64,000 nucleotides of DNA, taken from positions 248,001 through 312,000 of the forward strand of contig JAGOBK010000002.1 of NCBI GenBank assembly GCA_017983465.1. The letters are read 5' to 3'. Numbering within the stretch: position 1 is the first letter of the stretch; the number at the start of each line of letters is the position of its first letter. The notes below the pieces were generated by a model. That model was not told where the DNA came from, searched no databases, and saw only the letters and a program-made list of their open reading frames with translations. The DNA comes from Crocinitomicaceae bacterium (GTDB taxonomy: Bacteria > Bacteroidota > Bacteroidia > Flavobacteriales_D > Crocinitomicaceae). Below, piece after piece: positions 41,656 through 48,824 of this stretch. The position numbers and the translations under genes were made by a program.

Positions 41656-43527
41656 TTAGCGGCCCAAATGGATTAATAATACAGAAATATCACTTGGTGA
41701 AACACCTGAAACGCGCGAAGCTTGTCCAATTGTCCTTGGTTTTATTTTTTTCAACTTTTCTTTTGCTTCAGAAGAAATACTTTTCATTTCATCATAATTC
41801 ACCGAATCAGGAATAACGACATCTTCTAAACGAGCTAATTTATTGGCTTGTTCTTTTTCTCGTTCAATGTAACCTTCGTACTTCAATTGTATTTCTGTTT
41901 GAACCAATACATCCGAATCTTTTTCCGCGGCGATTAATGCAGCATCATTTGCTTCAGGACACACCTTTAATAAATCCGCCAGACTAATATGTGGACGAGT
42001 TAACAAACTTGTAATTTTCACCTGCTGATTAATCAGTGTAGATTCCATTTCGGCTAATAACGGGTTTGCTTGTTCTGGCGTAATTCCAATTTTTCTCAAT
42101 TCTTTCTTCAACCAATTTGTTTGTTGAATTTTTTGATAAACATTTTCTAATCGTTCATCATCCGCTAGTCCCAATGCATGACCCAAAGGTGTTAGGCGTT
42201 CATCCGCATTGTCCTGACGTAAAAGTATTCGAAATTCTGCTCGGCTAGTAAACATGCGATAGGGCTCATTCGTTCCTTTTGTAATTAAGTCATCAATCAA
42301 CACCCCAATATATGCATCACTTCGAGATAGAATAAATGGATCTTTATTGTTCAATTTCAAATGCGCATTTATTCCCGCCATTAATCCTTGGCAAGCAGCT
42401 TCTTCATATCCAGTTGTACCGTTTATTTGTCCGGCAAAATACAATCCCTCAATTAATTTTGTTTCCAGTGTATGTTTGAGTTGGGTAGGGGGGAAGTAAT
42501 CATATTCGATTGCATAACCAGGACGAAACATCTTCACGTTTTCAAATCCAGGAATCGTTTTTAATGCAGCTAATTGTACATCTTCGGGAAGCGAGGTACT
42601 GAAACCATTCACATATATTTCAACGGTATCCCAACCTTCCGGCTCCACAAATATTTGATGACGATCTCGGTCGGCAAAACGATTTATTTTATCTTCAATA
42701 CTTGGACAATACCTTGGACCCGTGCTTTTAATAGACCCATTAAACATTGGGGATCTGTCGAAACCAGTTTTTAGCATCTCGTGAGTTTCCGTATTGGTAT
42801 ATGTTATATAACACGGAACCTGTTTTGTTAAAGCACTATTATTGGAATAACTAAACTTTGAGGGATTTTGGTCCCCATCCTGTATTTCCATTTTAGAATA
42901 ATCCAAAGATCGACCATCAACTCTCGGTGGTGTTCCGGTCTTCATTCGTCCGGCTTCAAAACCCAACTGAATTAAATTTTCTGTGATTCCAGTTGATGCT
43001 TTTTCTGCAGCTCTTCCTCCACCAAACTGTTTCTCTCCAAGGTGAATGAGTCCGTTTAAAAACGTGCCGTTTGTTAACACCACAGCATCAGCAAAAATAT
43101 CAATATCGAGGGATGTTTTTACTCCGACAATTTTTCCTTCTTCTACTAAAACTCCCACACACATGTCCTGCCAAAAATCTACATTAGGATTCTGTTCAAG
43201 TAACATTCTCCATTCCCAAGAAAACATCATGCGGTCGTTTTGAGTGCGTGGAGACCACATTGCTGGGCCTTTTGACAAATTCAGCATTCGAAACTGAATA
43301 GCGCTTTTATCACTAACAATACCTGAGCCACCACCCAAAGCATCAATTTCTCGTACAATTTGACCTTTTGCAACTCCTCCCATTGCGGGATTACAGCTCA
43401 TCTGAGCAATGGTATTCATATTCATGGTTAGTAACAAAACCTTACTTCCCATTTTTGCCGCAGCGTTAGCGGCTTCACATCCAGCGTGACCTGCGCCAAC
43501 AACTATAACATCATATTTATCTAACAT
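41656..43527 (-). CDS. mnmG: tRNA uridine-5-carboxymethylaminomethyl modification enzyme MnmG (GidA)
   Basis: A FAD-dependent tRNA wobble-uridine modification enzyme, partner of MnmE. The 623 residues match the family. Landmarks are [19 protein letters not shown] (FAD), [31 protein letters not shown]-like [60 protein letters not shown] and the C-terminal [24 protein letters not shown]. It lies directly downstream of ybeY, with parS-like palindromes between and within them. In many bacteria mnmG is close to the replication origin. Confidence 0.96.
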
Positions 43528-43533
43528 GTCGAT

Positions 43534-43549
43534 TGTTTCACGTGGAACA
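43534..43549. promoter_or_regulatory. parS-like palindrome, site 1
   Basis: TGTTTCACGTGGAACA fits the bacterial parS consensus TGTTnCACGTGnAACA at every fixed position. It lies in the 22-bp gap between ybeY and mnmG, 6 nt upstream of the mnmG start. ParB binds such sites to organise the origin region. Confidence 0.75.
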
Positions 43550-43996
43550 TTAATTTATTAATTCACCCAATGTTTCACGTGGAACATATAGGTTTAAATA
43601 ATGAGCTTCTTTAAACCTCATCATTTCTATATCCTTCTTAGATTTATCTTTGAAACCACAAAGATGAAGAACACCATGGAAAATAACTCTATATAATTCT
43701 TCTTTAAAAATGGTTTTTTCTTTGGTGCTATTATCTAAAACTCTATCTAAAGATATAAGGAGATCACCACTTATTTTACCGTTTTCACAATAATCAAAAG
43801 TTATGATGTCTGTGTAGTAATCATGATTTAGAAAATCCTGGTTTACTTTTAAAAGATATTCGTCCGAACAAAAAACAATGGCAATATCACCTGTAGAAAA
43901 TCCTTCAGCAGAAATTAATGAATTAAGAAAAGTCTTTAATTGTCGAGATTTTACAAACTTTGGTTTAATAACATCGACACTATTTAACGATATCAT
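43550..43996 (-). CDS. ybeY: Endoribonuclease YbeY (rRNA maturation factor)
   Basis: A metal-dependent RNase for 16S 3' end maturation and ribosome quality control, 148 residues. The motif HxxxHxxxxxH reads H107-G-V-L-H111-L-C-G-F-K-D117, so the third ligand is Asp instead of His, as I recall for other Bacteroidota. Other landmarks: [25 protein letters not shown] and [11 protein letters not shown]. The C-terminal codons (VPRET) contain the second parS-like palindrome. It overlaps the RsbW-like gene by 4 nt. Confidence 0.92.
43571..43586. promoter_or_regulatory. parS-like palindrome, site 2 (inside ybeY)
   Basis: A second identical 16-mer TGTTTCACGTGGAACA, 37 bp from site 1, embedded in the C-terminal coding region of ybeY. 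Confidence 0.75.
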
Positions 43997-44406
43997 TTAC
44001 TGAAATAAATTATTACCTCATTACCTGCTTCATTGAAAGCAACCTCATCAGATAAATTTCTCATTAGAAATATACCTCTACCATTCTCTTTCAATATGTT
44101 TTCTGGGGCAGTTGGGTCTGGTAAATTATTATAATCAAATCCATCTCCTTGATCTTTTATTTTAAAACAGAAGGAATCAGTAGCGTCTCCAACGGCTACA
44201 TCAATACTTAATGTACTATTCTGTTCATTTCCGTGACTAATCGCATTATTTACTGCTTCAGTTACAGCAATCAACACATTTCCGAACGCATCTTCCTGAA
44301 CACCAACTGTTTGACAAACTTTCTCCACCAAATTCTCCACATCAACCAGTGATTGGAAATCAGCAGGTAACGTTATTTCCTCAATTATATTAAATCCTTC
44401 TTTCAT
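43993..44406 (-). CDS. RsbW-like serine/threonine kinase/anti-sigma ATPase domain protein
   Basis: A 137-residue single-domain GHKL ATPase. The ATP-binding boxes are visible: N-box VTEAVNNAISHGN, G1 KIKDQGDGFDYNN and G2 NGRGIFLMRNLSDEV. In Firmicutes such proteins bind and phosphorylate anti-sigma factor antagonists. No STAS or sigma gene is adjacent. The order ybeY, this gene, DUF4175 protein is, as I recall, conserved in Bacteroidota, so the role may be linked to that of its neighbours. ATGA-type overlap with ybeY; 24 nt after the DUF4175 gene. Confidence 0.9.
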   Translation of the reverse strand: MKEGFNIIEEITLPADFQSLVDVENLVEKVCQTVGVQEDAFGNVLIAVTEAVNNAISHGNEQNSTLSIDVAVGDATDSFCFKIKDQGDGFDYNNLPDPTAPENILKENGRGIFLMRNLSDEVAFNEAGNEVIIYFSK

Positions 44407-44430: not shown

Positions 44431-47400
44431 TTAGTTTAGATTGAAATATTGATTTGCTCTTTCCTTATAATACAATCTAAGGGATGGATCAGCGCTCTTC
44501 AATAATTCTATTTCCTTTAATTTGGTTTTGTTATACTCATCAAATCTGATTTTGTTACTAGAATCTATATCTTTTCCTGATTTAGATTCTCTTTTTTCTT
44601 CATAACCTCTTTCCATCATCGCTTTTTCACTTTCCAACAACCTCGTTAGTATTTCCTTCTGGCGGTTAATAAGGTCCTTATTGATGTTTCTATTGATGAT
44701 GCTTTTCTCTTGTTCTTCCAACTCTTTTATTAAAGGATTTAATTGATTACCTAACCCTTTACCCTCCTTATTCATTTCGTTTCTTAACTGTTCCAAACGT
44801 TGACGAATAGCAGTTTGTTCTGCTGCCATTTTGGCCATTTCCTTATTACCCAATCCTAGCATATTTTGACCAGAATTACCAGGACTCGATCCAGGTTGAC
44901 TACCAGGTTTGTTTCCCTGTTTATCACCTGGCTTATCTCCACCCGGATTTGGTCCTTTTTGCATTTGTTCCAATTGCTTTTTCAACATTTCTTTCATGTC
45001 ACCGGTTGACATGGATTGTCCTGGTTTTGGACGACCTTTGCCAGGATTATTACAACTTCCTGATCCCGACATTTCGCTTTGCATTTGACTTTGCATGCTT
45101 TGTAAGGCTTCGTTTAACAGAAGAGCTAAATTGTTGTAAGAAGTCATTACCAATTGTTGGTGTTTATTCAGATCCTTTTTTCTATGGTCATCAATATCTT
45201 CTACAGATAGCCGCTGATTGGACTCAATTGCATTTAATTCTCTATCAATAAAAGAAGCTATTTTAGGTTGACGTTTCGCTAATGCCAACAAACTATCCTT
45301 TACAATTTTCGTTTCATCGATTATACGTTGTTGACGTCTTCCCAGTTTACGGTAGAGAGGGTCCAACGTGGTTACTTTTGAAAATTTATTCATTAACGCT
45401 TCTTGATCGAAACTTAAGGTCATTAAACTTTCTAAAATATTTCGAAGAGATTTCATGTCCTCTTCTTGTTCCTTTTTATTTGCTTGTTGCTGTTTGGCAT
45501 TTAATTGATTTGCCATTGAATTCATTCCTTCTGATGCAGATTTTTGTTTTTCTCCAGCCTTTTTATCTTTACCCTGTTCTAAAGATTCTTTCGCATCATT
45601 TAAATCTTCACTTACTTGTTCTTCCATTTGATCCAGATTACCTAAATCCATGGGTTTATCTAATTCCTTGTTTAGTTCGTCTAATTTTTGAAGGTCCTTT
45701 TTAAGTTCATCAAATTTCTTATTCAGTTCCTCTTGTTTTTTAACTAATTCCTCCTTTGTTAATTCCTCTTTATTTTGATCACGAAGTTCATCTTGTTCTT
45801 TAGCTAAATCCTTCAATTCCTTCTCTACATCATCAATACGTTCGTTTAGCTGCATTTTCTTTAACATCTCAAGGCTTCGGTCCAATTGCTTTTTCATATC
45901 CTCACTGGACTGATTAAGCTCTTCCATTTTTTCCTTTACCTGTTCCTTGTCATTTTGTTGAAGTAATTTTTCTAGATCCTCTAATAATTTCTTTAATTCA
46001 TCATCCATTAATTCATCCAAAAGCTTTTCAATCATCTCTTGTTTTTCGAGTAATTCTTTATCCATAGGAGAAAGCTGATTTTTTTCCTCAAGGCTTTTAT
46101 CCATTTCGTTTTGGATTTTTTCTAACGATTCCAAAAGTGTAGATTGTTCTTCTTTAAGTTGCTGAACTTTATTCAATTTATTCCAATCAGAAGACTTTGA
46201 ATTCATCGTCTCTTTTTTCAATTGAGCGATATTCTTCTGAAACTCCTGAGTCTTTTTTACTAATTGATCTAGATCCTCTTTTGTTCTATTTTGATCCTCT
46301 TGTCTAGAATCATTTAACTCCTCCAAGGTGGGTAATTCATATGTAAATAACTGACTTTTAGCAGCTTTACTACCATTCACGCCATCATTATCATATACGA
46401 CAAAATAATATTCAATTTTATCATTTAATCGAACATCTTCTCTCTTAAAATCAACAGCAAACGTAAAATTCATTTGTGATCCTGCTACCTGTTGAACAGG
46501 CATCCTCACTTCTTTATTTTGTCCATTCTCCCTGATGATTTTATACACAAATTGTAAGGACTTCAATCCATAATCATCTGATGTAATTCCTTTAAAATAC
46601 TTTAATCCTTCGGATATCGTATCTGTTTGTTCAGCAACCTCAATCGATGGAAAAGCATCTTTAATAACATTTACTTTATACTGAATAGTATCATTATCAT
46701 GATTGAAACGATTCTCTAAAATAAATTTCAATACCTTATCGTCTTTACAGAGTTGTTTATATTTAAAAGATTCCTCTTTAAACACGGATCGAAGTTGATT
46801 CCAAAAAACATTCGTTTTGAAAGTATTTTTAGTTCGGATTCGCCACTCCACTTGACTACCTTCTGGTAGTGTTAAATCACCTACATTTTCAATGACTTCA
46901 TTTTCTTTTCCAAGGTAAGATGGATATGTACACAAAGCTTGAATACTTCCAATTAAGGATTTACCGATAACATTTAGTTTGTATTTATCACTGTCAAATT
47001 CATTGGTAGTAAAATAAAAAGTAGCGTTTTTCTTAGGTTTATTTATACTTCCAATAAATTTATTTTTTGTTTTACGAAGTAATAGAAATTTACCTTGGTC
47101 ACTTACAACAAACACTTGATTAGGTAATTCCTTTTTACCAGATGGTGATTCAATTGGAATAATATCTAACTCAATTGGAAAATCAACACCTTCCTCCACC
47201 GTTAAGTTTCTTTTTTTCAATACAAACTGAAAGGGAGCTTGCTCCTTAAAAACCTTATTGTAGTAAACTACATGTTCAGTACCTTGAGTAATTATGGATG
47301 GAATAAAAATGGCTATTCCAATGAAACAAACAAACAACGGAATTAAGTACTTAAAATACTTTCTATTTTCCTCTATTCGTACTGCATTTTTAAAGGGAAT

Positions 47401-47826
47401 AACACTTAATTCTGAAGATCGTTGGTTGACGCTAGCTCTCAATAATTCAATATTCCCTTCCTGATGAATTAAATCATTTTGCAATTGAAGAGTATTTTTT
47501 AATCGATCCGAGATGGAAGGAAAAAAAGAACCAATTATTTCTGCTGCTTGAATTCTACTAATTTGTTTTCCAAATGAAATTAATTTCGATACTGGAATCA
47601 AAATGAATCGAAAACAAACGAAAGCATTTAAACCAATAAAACCGAAAAATAAGATTGCTCGAACGAGTGAATTAAACCTTCCAAAATATTCGAATGTTGT
47701 CGCAAATAAAAAAGAAAATAAAAAAATCACAAAAAACAGCAATAGTCCACGAATCATTTGATTCTTATAGTACTTTCGTATAAAAGCATCTATTTGACCA
47801 ATAAGCGTATCGAAGCTATTTTTCAT
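44431..47826 (-). CDS. DUF4175-domain protein, large membrane-anchored coiled-coil protein
   Basis: A 1131-residue protein. Two N-terminal membrane helices lie at about 27-47 and 57-80 and a third at about 153-172 (FKYLIPLFVCFIGIAIFIPSII). A beta-rich region spans about 190-500. It then has a very long Glu/Lys/Gln-rich coiled coil (about 505-850) and a low-complexity Gly/Pro/Lys/Gln linker (about 945-985). This layout fits DUF4175. Function unknown; size and topology suggest a structural envelope role (inference). TACTTTTA, one mismatch from the -7 consensus, ends 4 nt before ATG 47826. It leads the operon through mnmG. Confidence 0.88.
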   Translation of the reverse strand: MKNSFDTLIGQIDAFIRKYYKNQMIRGLLLFFVIFLFSFLFATTFEYFGRFNSLVRAILFFGFIGLNAFVCFRFILIPVSKLISFGKQISRIQAAEIIGSFFPSISDRLKNTLQLQNDLIHQEGNIELLRASVNQRSSELSVIPFKNAVRIEENRKYFKYLIPLFVCFIGIAIFIPSIITQGTEHVVYYNKVFKEQAPFQFVLKKRNLTVEEGVDFPIELDIIPIESPSGKKELPNQVFVVSDQGKFLLLRKTKNKFIGSINKPKKNATFYFTTNEFDSDKYKLNVIGKSLIGSIQALCTYPSYLGKENEVIENVGDLTLPEGSQVEWRIRTKNTFKTNVFWNQLRSVFKEESFKYKQLCKDDKVLKFILENRFNHDNDTIQYKVNVIKDAFPSIEVAEQTDTISEGLKYFKGITSDDYGLKSLQFVYKIIRENGQNKEVRMPVQQVAGSQMNFTFAVDFKREDVRLNDKIEYYFVVYDNDGVNGSKAAKSQLFTYELPTLEELNDSRQEDQNRTKEDLDQLVKKTQEFQKNIAQLKKETMNSKSSDWNKLNKVQQLKEEQSTLLESLEKIQNEMDKSLEEKNQLSPMDKELLEKQEMIEKLLDELMDDELKKLLEDLEKLLQQNDKEQVKEKMEELNQSSEDMKKQLDRSLEMLKKMQLNERIDDVEKELKDLAKEQDELRDQNKEELTKEELVKKQEELNKKFDELKKDLQKLDELNKELDKPMDLGNLDQMEEQVSEDLNDAKESLEQGKDKKAGEKQKSASEGMNSMANQLNAKQQQANKKEQEEDMKSLRNILESLMTLSFDQEALMNKFSKVTTLDPLYRKLGRRQQRIIDETKIVKDSLLALAKRQPKIASFIDRELNAIESNQRLSVEDIDDHRKKDLNKHQQLVMTSYNNLALLLNEALQSMQSQMQSEMSGSGSCNNPGKGRPKPGQSMSTGDMKEMLKKQLEQMQKGPNPGGDKPGDKQGNKPGSQPGSSPGNSGQNMLGLGNKEMAKMAAEQTAIRQRLEQLRNEMNKEGKGLGNQLNPLIKELEEQEKSIINRNINKDLINRQKEILTRLLESEKAMMERGYEEKRESKSGKDIDSSNKIRFDEYNKTKLKEIELLKSADPSLRLYYKERANQYFNLN

Positions 47827-48235
47827 GAGATAAAAGTATTCAAGATTTTGATACAGGACAAATTTTCGAGTCTGAACTTAGTTATATATAATATATTTCT
47901 TTTTTAAAATTATTTAAAGAATTTATTACTCTTATTAAGGATGTTCATATGTGTAAAAGTTTCAACTCAAAATTTTGATTTACCGTTTTTAACAATTTAT
48001 ACTACATAACACACAAGTTATATGAATGTATTTAATAGAAAATCAATAAGTTACACTGTTATAAACAAAAACACTATTTAAGTCATTGTTTATAATAATA
48101 GAAATTTCTCTTACATAAATTCGTTTATAACCATAGTGATATCAAAGGGTAACTTAAGCAAACTTTTAGTGTATAATTCAAAAAAAGGTGCAATTCGATT
48201 ATTCTTTCAATAAAGCAAGATAAACTTTTGAGTTC

Positions 48236-48254
48236 TTATACACTGTTATTCACA
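48236..48254 (+). promoter_or_regulatory. Two tandem DnaA-box-like 9-mers, 10 bp apart
   Basis: TTATACACT then TTATTCACA begin exactly 10 bp apart in the same orientation, that is, on the same helical face, as expected for cooperative DnaA binding. The second is an exact match to TTATnCACA. Confidence 0.5.
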
Positions 48255-48368
48255 ATTTAATCACTCATATCGTGTATAAGTCGCTTTTTACATTTCAGTA
48301 AAACAAGGGCTTTCCATTTATCATCATATCTAAATAGTTAATAACTCGGGCTATTTGTGAATAGTGTT

Positions 48369-48376
48369 TACCTTTG
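48369..48376 (+). promoter_or_regulatory. -7 box TACCTTTG for rpiB
   Basis: A perfect TAnnTTTG, 19 nt before ATG 48396. No TTG is evident at the expected -33 distance. Confidence 0.5.
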
Positions 48377-48395
48377 TAATCTAAAATAAATAGAG

Positions 48396-48824
48396 ATGAT
48401 TATTCCAATAGGTTGCGATCACGCAGGATTTAAAACGAAAGAACTTATCATTAAACACCTTACAAGTAAAGGATTACAAGTAAAGGATTTCGGTTGTTAT
48501 TCAGAGGATAGTATTGATTATCCTGATTATGCGCACCCTGTGGCACAAATGGTAGAAGAAAACCCAGGAATGATTGGAATTCTTTTGTGTGGTTCTGGTA
48601 ACGGAATCAATATGACCGCTAATAAACATGAAGGTATTCGTAGTGCATTGTGTTGGGAAACCGAAATTGCTAAATTAGCTCGTTCACATAATAATGCGAA
48701 TATTATCGCTATTCCTGCACGTTTTGTATCTGAAGAATTAGCATTGGAAATGGTGGATGCATTTTTAGAAACCGAATTCGAAGGGGGAAGACACCAAAAT
48801 AGAATTAATAAAATTCCTTGTTAG
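48396..48824 (+). CDS. rpiB: Ribose-5-phosphate isomerase B
   Basis: Interconverts ribose 5-phosphate and ribulose 5-phosphate, cytosolic, 142 residues. Landmarks: IGCDHAGFKTKELI at the N-terminus, catalytic Cys65 in LLCGSGNGINM, NKHEGIRSALC and RSHNNANIIAIPARFV. All conserved RpiB positions appear intact. The stop overlaps the convergent OmpA-family gene by 4 nt. Confidence 0.95.
   Translation: MIIPIGCDHAGFKTKELIIKHLTSKGLQVKDFGCYSEDSIDYPDYAHPVAQMVEENPGMIGILLCGSGNGINMTANKHEGIRSALCWETEIAKLARSHNNANIIAIPARFVSEELALEMVDAFLETEFEGGRHQNRINKIPC

What the first reader, a model, noticed from the sequence alone, without database searches (positions are those of the whole stretch)
43534..43586. Two identical perfect parS-like palindromes 37 bp apart at the mnmG/ybeY junction
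Seen: TGTTTCACGTGGAACA twice, at 43534-43549 (intergenic) and 43571-43586 (inside ybeY coding sequence); each fits TGTTnCACGTGnAACA at every fixed base. Known: this consensus is conserved ParB-binding parS across most bacteria. Two copies of a 14-fixed-base motif within 53 bp are very unlikely by chance. One copy is forced to coexist with a conserved YbeY C-terminal coding sequence (VPRET).
Basis: partly seen in the sequence, partly recalled or inferred. Interest (0 to 1): 0.68.

Follow-up and report, generated by a model that had tools for sequence, protein, structure and literature searches.

The report
Chromosome centromere sites overlapping ybeY gene
The two identical palindromes are this bacterium's chromosome "centromere" (parS) sites, the docking points for the ParB segregation protein; they sit beside the likely replication origin, and the DNA signal is kept so strictly in relatives that it dictates the end of the neighbouring ybeY protein.

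Summary
In detail: TGTTTCACGTGGAACA occurs at 43534-43549 and 43571-43586. These are the only exact matches to TGTTNCACGTGNAACA in the 2.56-Mb genome (0.01 expected). The parS reading is strongly supported. The genome has one ParB with parS-type contact residues beside a ParA. All 54 same-genus genomes whose mnmG was found carry parS-like sites at the ybeY/mnmG junction (50 exact, 4 with one mismatch), and parS stays with mnmG across Bacteroidota. In 34 genus genomes encoding V[SP]RET, all 34 use exactly the parS codons. Other relatives read the same DNA in two other frames (LFHVKQ/H, FT*), so selection acts on the DNA; VPRET is not a conserved YbeY motif but is written by the centromere. GC3 skew changes sign within the window, and a 569-bp AT-rich, DnaA-box-enriched gap 4.2 kb away (47827-48395), conserved in 13/13 relatives, is a good oriC candidate. 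In three complete relatives the skew origin falls 16-28 kb from parS and dnaA is 1.7-1.9 Mb away; in two of them parAB was also located, near the terminus. No Smc-ScpAB was found. The sites are ordinary parS in kind; the overlap, oriC candidate and distant parAB/dnaA are the interesting parts. ParB binding and origin function are inferred.

The parts
43534..43549 (.). parS copy 1 (TGTTTCACGTGGAACA), between the ybeY stop and the mnmG start
   Evidence: the mnmG-proximal site usually lies 22-27 bp upstream of the mnmG ATG in the genus
43571..43586 (.). parS copy 2 (TGTTTCACGTGGAACA), overlapping codons for V-P-R-E-T near the ybeY 3' end
43550..43996 (-). ybeY (endoribonuclease YbeY); its C-terminal tail is partly written by parS copy 2
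   Evidence: PF02130, E 1.6e-22; ORF
41656..43527 (-). mnmG/gidA; the gene that parS stays with across Bacteroidota
   Evidence: PF01134, E 1.3e-165
43993..44406 (-). RsbW-like/HATPase_c_2 anti-sigma-type kinase gene, upstream member of the conserved rsbW-ybeY-mnmG block
   Evidence: PF13581; synteny
44431..47826 (-). large DUF4175 gene between the parS block and the candidate oriC
   Evidence: PF13779; conserved in 13/13 same-genus relatives fetched
47827..48395 (.). candidate oriC: 569-bp intergenic region, 76% AT, holds the most AT-rich 200 bp of the window and a cluster of TTATNCAC DnaA-box-like words (48168, 48236, 48246, 48271)
   Evidence: per-gene GC3 skew changes sign here
48396..48824 (+). 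rpiB-like sugar isomerase gene (named from its sequence), right border of the candidate oriC
   Evidence: arrangement conserved in 13/13 relatives

Best explanation
The two palindromes are the chromosomal parS centromere of a freshwater Crocinitomicaceae-type bacterium (Bacteroidota). Inferred mechanism, from the known ParABS pathway: ParB dimers bind each 16-bp site, load CTP, clamp and slide onto flanking DNA, and the ParB-coated region is moved by ParA so that newly copied origins separate first. Shown here by sequence: the sites are the only exact copies in the genome; a ParB with parS-type residues is present; the sites are conserved at the same place; and the place is origin-proximal. 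Two close copies likely give redundancy. Copy 2 coexists with ybeY because the tail of YbeY tolerates whatever residues the fixed DNA encodes.
For: Only two exact sites genome-wide. Single ParB with ParB_N, HTH_ParB and ParB_C next to ParA, hitting ParB-family solved structures, including the Caulobacter ParB chain 6t1f at E 1.8e-47. Contact residues equivalent to Caulobacter Q162, K171, S172, R173, N178, G201 and R204 are kept (Q157, K166, S167, R168, N173, G196, R199; residue roles from PMC7383237). Junction sites in 54/54 genus genomes with mnmG. All 5 near-complete family genomes that lack an exact site but have 1-mismatch sites carry them at mnmG. parS codons invariant in 34/34 while conserved Val/Arg/Thr codons elsewhere in YbeY have top-codon fractions of 0.25-0.60. 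Three reading frames for the same DNA. Skew origins 16-28 kb from parS in three complete relatives, 0/300 permutations as good. GC3 skew sign change and candidate oriC within the window.
Against: No binding data. The assembly is in 13 contigs, so the whole-chromosome position in this strain is read from relatives plus the local GC3 switch. Caulobacter G170 is Ala here (G, A or S in relatives). ParB and ParA lie far from parS, unlike the textbook layout.
Confidence: 0.95

Rival explanations
1. The palindromes are operators that let ParB or another regulator control mnmG and ybeY transcription, with segregation secondary.
For: The proximal site usually sits 22-27 bp upstream of the mnmG start codon; ParB can affect nearby promoters in some species (PMC7022226).
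Against: In many Bacteroidales the site lies downstream of mnmG instead, and genus g7 has a copy in the middle of ybeY; position relative to promoters is not kept, position relative to mnmG and the origin is.
Confidence: 0.08
2. The sites serve mainly to load an unidentified, non-Smc-ScpAB condensin rather than as a ParA-driven centromere.
For: ScpB absent in 7 of 7 family genomes while control genomes score; no SMC above its cut-off in 5 of 5; arm alignment without known condensins reported for Bacteroides caecimuris (PMC10197239).
Against: A ParA gene sits beside parB; no candidate loader was found; the two roles are not exclusive.
Confidence: 0.15
3. Chance palindromes, or a coding motif of YbeY that happens to resemble parS.
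For: One copy lies in coding sequence.
Against: 0.010 expected per genome; reversed control 0 in 150 genomes; different reading frames and invariant codons.
Confidence: 0.01

Closest known systems
Chromosomal ParABS / parS (TGTTNCACGTGNAACA; Livny et al. 2007, not held; review PMC7333895)
   Same: Same 16-bp palindrome, canonical ParB with parS-type residues, adjacent ParA, few clustered origin-proximal sites.
   Different: parAB and dnaA are far from parS; in two complete relatives parB lies 87-95% of the way from origin to terminus, against the usual par operon in the origin domain (PMC7022226).
Pseudomonas aeruginosa parS cluster (PMC4368675)
   Same: parS sites overlapping coding sequences are normal: nine of ten there are thought to be within genes.
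   Different: Here the overlapped gene end varies in reading frame between species while the DNA stays fixed.
Bacteroides caecimuris / Muribaculum intestinale parS and origin (PMC10197239)
   Same: Bacteroidota with parS clusters, no recognised condensin, and an origin that need not coincide with dnaA.
   Different: That study does not describe the mnmG link or the ybeY overlap in the passages read.
Elizabethkingia meningoseptica predicted oriC (PMC8994065)
   Same: Flavobacteriia genome with predicted oriC (0.74 Mb) far from dnaA (2.61 Mb).
   Different: Candidate oriC here is tied to a conserved DUF4175-rpiB gap beside the parS block.

Membership tests
Chromosomal parS site | Matches the 16-bp palindrome TGTTNCACGTGNAACA | tested here: met
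   two sites, 0 mismatches
Chromosomal parS site | Cognate ParB with parS-type recognition residues (R173, G201 in Caulobacter numbering) | tested here: met
   R168 and G196 in this ParB (PMC7383237)
Chromosomal parS site | ParA partner in the genome | tested here: met
   ParA-type ATPase directly upstream of parB
Chromosomal parS site | Few copies, clustered, not scattered | tested here: met
   2 exact copies 37 bp apart in 2.56 Mb
Chromosomal parS site | Origin-proximal | tested here: met
   skew origin 16-28 kb away in three complete relatives at about 115-kb sampling; GC3 switch in this window
Chromosomal parS site | Bound by ParB in vivo or in vitro | not testable with these tools
   needs ChIP-seq or gel shift
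Classical ParABS layout (parAB operon in the origin domain) | parAB near oriC | tested here: not met
   parB 87% (G004) and 95% (G070) of the way from origin to terminus; in this assembly on another contig
Smc-ScpAB loading at parS | Smc and ScpB encoded | tested here: not met
   no ScpB in 7 genomes; no SMC over cut-off in 5 genomes
Noc binding site (NBS) | Noc-type protein (Q173, K179/K184, R201) | tested here: not met
   the only HTH_ParB protein has R168 and G196
oriC (candidate 47827-48395) | AT-rich intergenic region with a DnaA-box cluster at the skew switch | tested here: met
   25 TTATNCAC words in 14 genomes against 1.6 expected; TTATACAC is the top 8-mer, 11/14 genomes; skew
oriC (candidate 47827-48395) | Replication starts there | not testable with these tools
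   needs marker-frequency sequencing

The most novel reading that the evidence does not exclude
In this family the centromere and oriC have stayed together beside mnmG while both trans-acting genes (parAB and dnaA) moved to the terminus half, and ParB-parS works without Smc-ScpAB. parS copies turn over within about 150 bp and rewrite the YbeY tail in whichever frame they fall.
Probability: 0.4. Interest if true: 0.58.

Novelty: new member of a known kind. Interest (0 to 1): 0.42.

Why it matters
It gives a precise centromere and a testable origin for an uncultured-type freshwater lineage. It also gives many natural replicates for the open question why parS sites stay clustered in a narrow zone (raised in PMC7333895), because sites are seen gained, lost and shifted within about 150 bp across 54 species. 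It warns that dnaA is a poor origin marker in these genomes; parS and mnmG are better. It shows a protein end set by a DNA-binding site.

Tried and rejected
Plain GC skew of the window was noisy. The exact E. coli-type DnaA box pattern TTATNCACA was not enriched over the whole window; the cluster appeared only with the shorter 8-base core in the AT-rich gap, then held up in relatives and in an unbiased 8-mer count. Two off-locus exact matches in relatives (L018, L032, with G at the free position) and the own genome's 1-mismatch site (L003) are not at mnmG and were set aside as chance. The one near-complete same-genus genome without a site (G108) has no mnmG in its assembly. Regular helical spacing of the two sites was considered and not supported: spacings run from 24 to 50 bp. 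Livny et al. 2007 is not held, so whether Bacteroidetes parS near gidA was tabulated there could not be checked.

Full report
Observation. Two copies of TGTTTCACGTGGAACA lie at 43534-43549 and 43571-43586, 37 bp apart start to start. Copy 1 fills most of the 22-bp space between the ybeY stop and the mnmG start; copy 2 lies in ybeY codons for VPRET. They are the only exact matches to TGTTNCACGTGNAACA in the genome, where 0.010 would be expected from base composition, and 2.5e-9 for a close pair.

The partner proteins. The genome has one HTH_ParB protein, encoded directly after a ParA-type ATPase. It aligns with ParB-family chains of solved structures at E down to 7.5e-51, among them Caulobacter ParB 6t1f at 1.8e-47. 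Residues that contact parS in Caulobacter ParB (PMC7383237) are kept: R173 and G201, which separate ParB from Noc, are R168 and G196 here, and Q162, K171, S172, N178 and R204 are also matched; only G170 is Ala. The residue mapping was done by hand from motif spacing.

Conservation of the place. In the family, 132 of 150 genomes carry exact sites and the reversed control none. Of 30 fetched loci, 28 are at the rsbW-ybeY-mnmG block. The six near-complete genomes without an exact site resolve as follows: five have 1-mismatch sites, which lie at mnmG, and G108 has no mnmG in its assembly. In the genus, 54 of 54 junctions have a parS-like site: 32 with two exact, 18 with one exact, 4 with one-mismatch sites only or mainly. 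Over 80 named Bacteroidota ybeY loci there are 115 exact and 34 one-mismatch sites against 0 and 0 for the reversed motif; where mnmG is in the stretch, exact sites are upstream in 31, downstream in 24 and on both sides in 3. Where ybeY and mnmG are in opposite orientation (L104, L123), the site stays at the mnmG end. In a phylum-wide sample, 184 of 247 genomes have an exact site.

DNA first, protein second. In the genus the YbeY tail reads V[SP]RET in 34 of 54 genomes, LFHVKQ/H in others, and GFT-stop in two; SFT-stop occurs in other Bacteroidota, and Aquimarina reads MFHVEH. These are three readings of the same DNA. In the 34 V[SP]RET genomes all use the parS codons exactly (32 TCA-Ser, 2 CCA-Pro at the free position), while equally conserved YbeY residues use mixed codons: top fractions 0.25-0.37 for Arg, 0.28-0.31 for Thr, 0.40-0.60 for Val. 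Genus g7 has a parS inside mid-ybeY (NVSRETEL) 136 bp from a second intergenic site. So parS copies come and go within a narrow zone and the protein yields. The genomes share ancestry, so the 34 are not independent; the synonymous saturation at other codons is the control for that.

Origin. In three complete relatives (two genera), sampled GC skew places the origin 16-28 kb from parS at about 115-kb sampling (0 of 300 permutations as good; bootstrap intervals reach a few hundred kb), with dnaA 1.66-1.87 Mb away. In the two with parB located, parB is 87% and 95% of the way to the terminus. In this window per-gene GC3 skew is mostly negative up to 47.8 kb and mostly positive from about 51 kb. 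The gap 47827-48395 holds the most AT-rich 200 bp of the window. The DUF4175 / gap / rpiB arrangement is conserved in 13 of 13 relatives (432-653 bp, 71-82% AT), and TTATNCAC words number 25 against 1.6 expected in dinucleotide shuffles (maximum 5); TTATACAC is the most enriched 8-mer, in 11 of 14 genomes against 0.59 expected. It is therefore a good oriC candidate, 4.2 kb from parS. Origin function is inferred.

Mechanism. From established ParABS work (PMC7333895): ParB nucleates on parS, slides as a CTP clamp, and ParA moves the complex. No ScpB was found in 7 family genomes and no SMC above its cut-off in 5, in line with the report that two gut Bacteroidetes lack known condensins (PMC10197239). 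So the usual Smc loading step is probably absent or done by something else.

What is known and what is not. parS in coding sequence is ordinary (PMC4368675). dnaA away from the origin is already reported for Bacteroidota (PMC8994065, PMC10197239). The par operon far from parS departs from the usual rule (PMC7022226). I did not find a description of the mnmG/ybeY parS link in the papers held, but Livny 2007 could not be read, so priority is uncertain.

Verdict. The finding is real and correctly read as parS. It is a new member of a known kind, with an unusually clear case of a centromere dictating a protein end and an unusual placement of its trans-acting genes.

Noticed in passing
window 47827-48395: AT-rich, DnaA-box-enriched gap between a DUF4175 gene and rpiB at the GC3 skew switch: candidate oriC, conserved in 13/13 same-genus relatives.
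   Followed up: yes
G070, G004, G096, G078 (relatives): dnaA is far from parS in all four, and parB is also far from parS in G070, G004 and G078; by the skew fits (G070, G004, G096) dnaA lies in the terminus half, and parB is close to the terminus in G070 and G004.
   Followed up: partly
G000 and six relatives: No ScpB (7 genomes) and no SMC above its family cut-off (5 genomes), so ParB-parS seems to work without Smc-ScpAB.
   Followed up: partly
G092, G164 and G154 junctions (L295, L303, L299): The ybeY copy has a mutated core (CATGTG), giving VSCET; in G092 and G164 the second copy also has one mismatch: possible decay or altered specificity.
   Followed up: no
L019-L028 (genus g7): parS in the middle of ybeY (NVSRETEL) in a set of species, 136 bp from the intergenic copy in nine of the ten.
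   Followed up: partly
L121 (Filimonas zeae): Six one-mismatch parS-like sites over 2 kb between ybeY and mnmG and no exact one.
   Followed up: no
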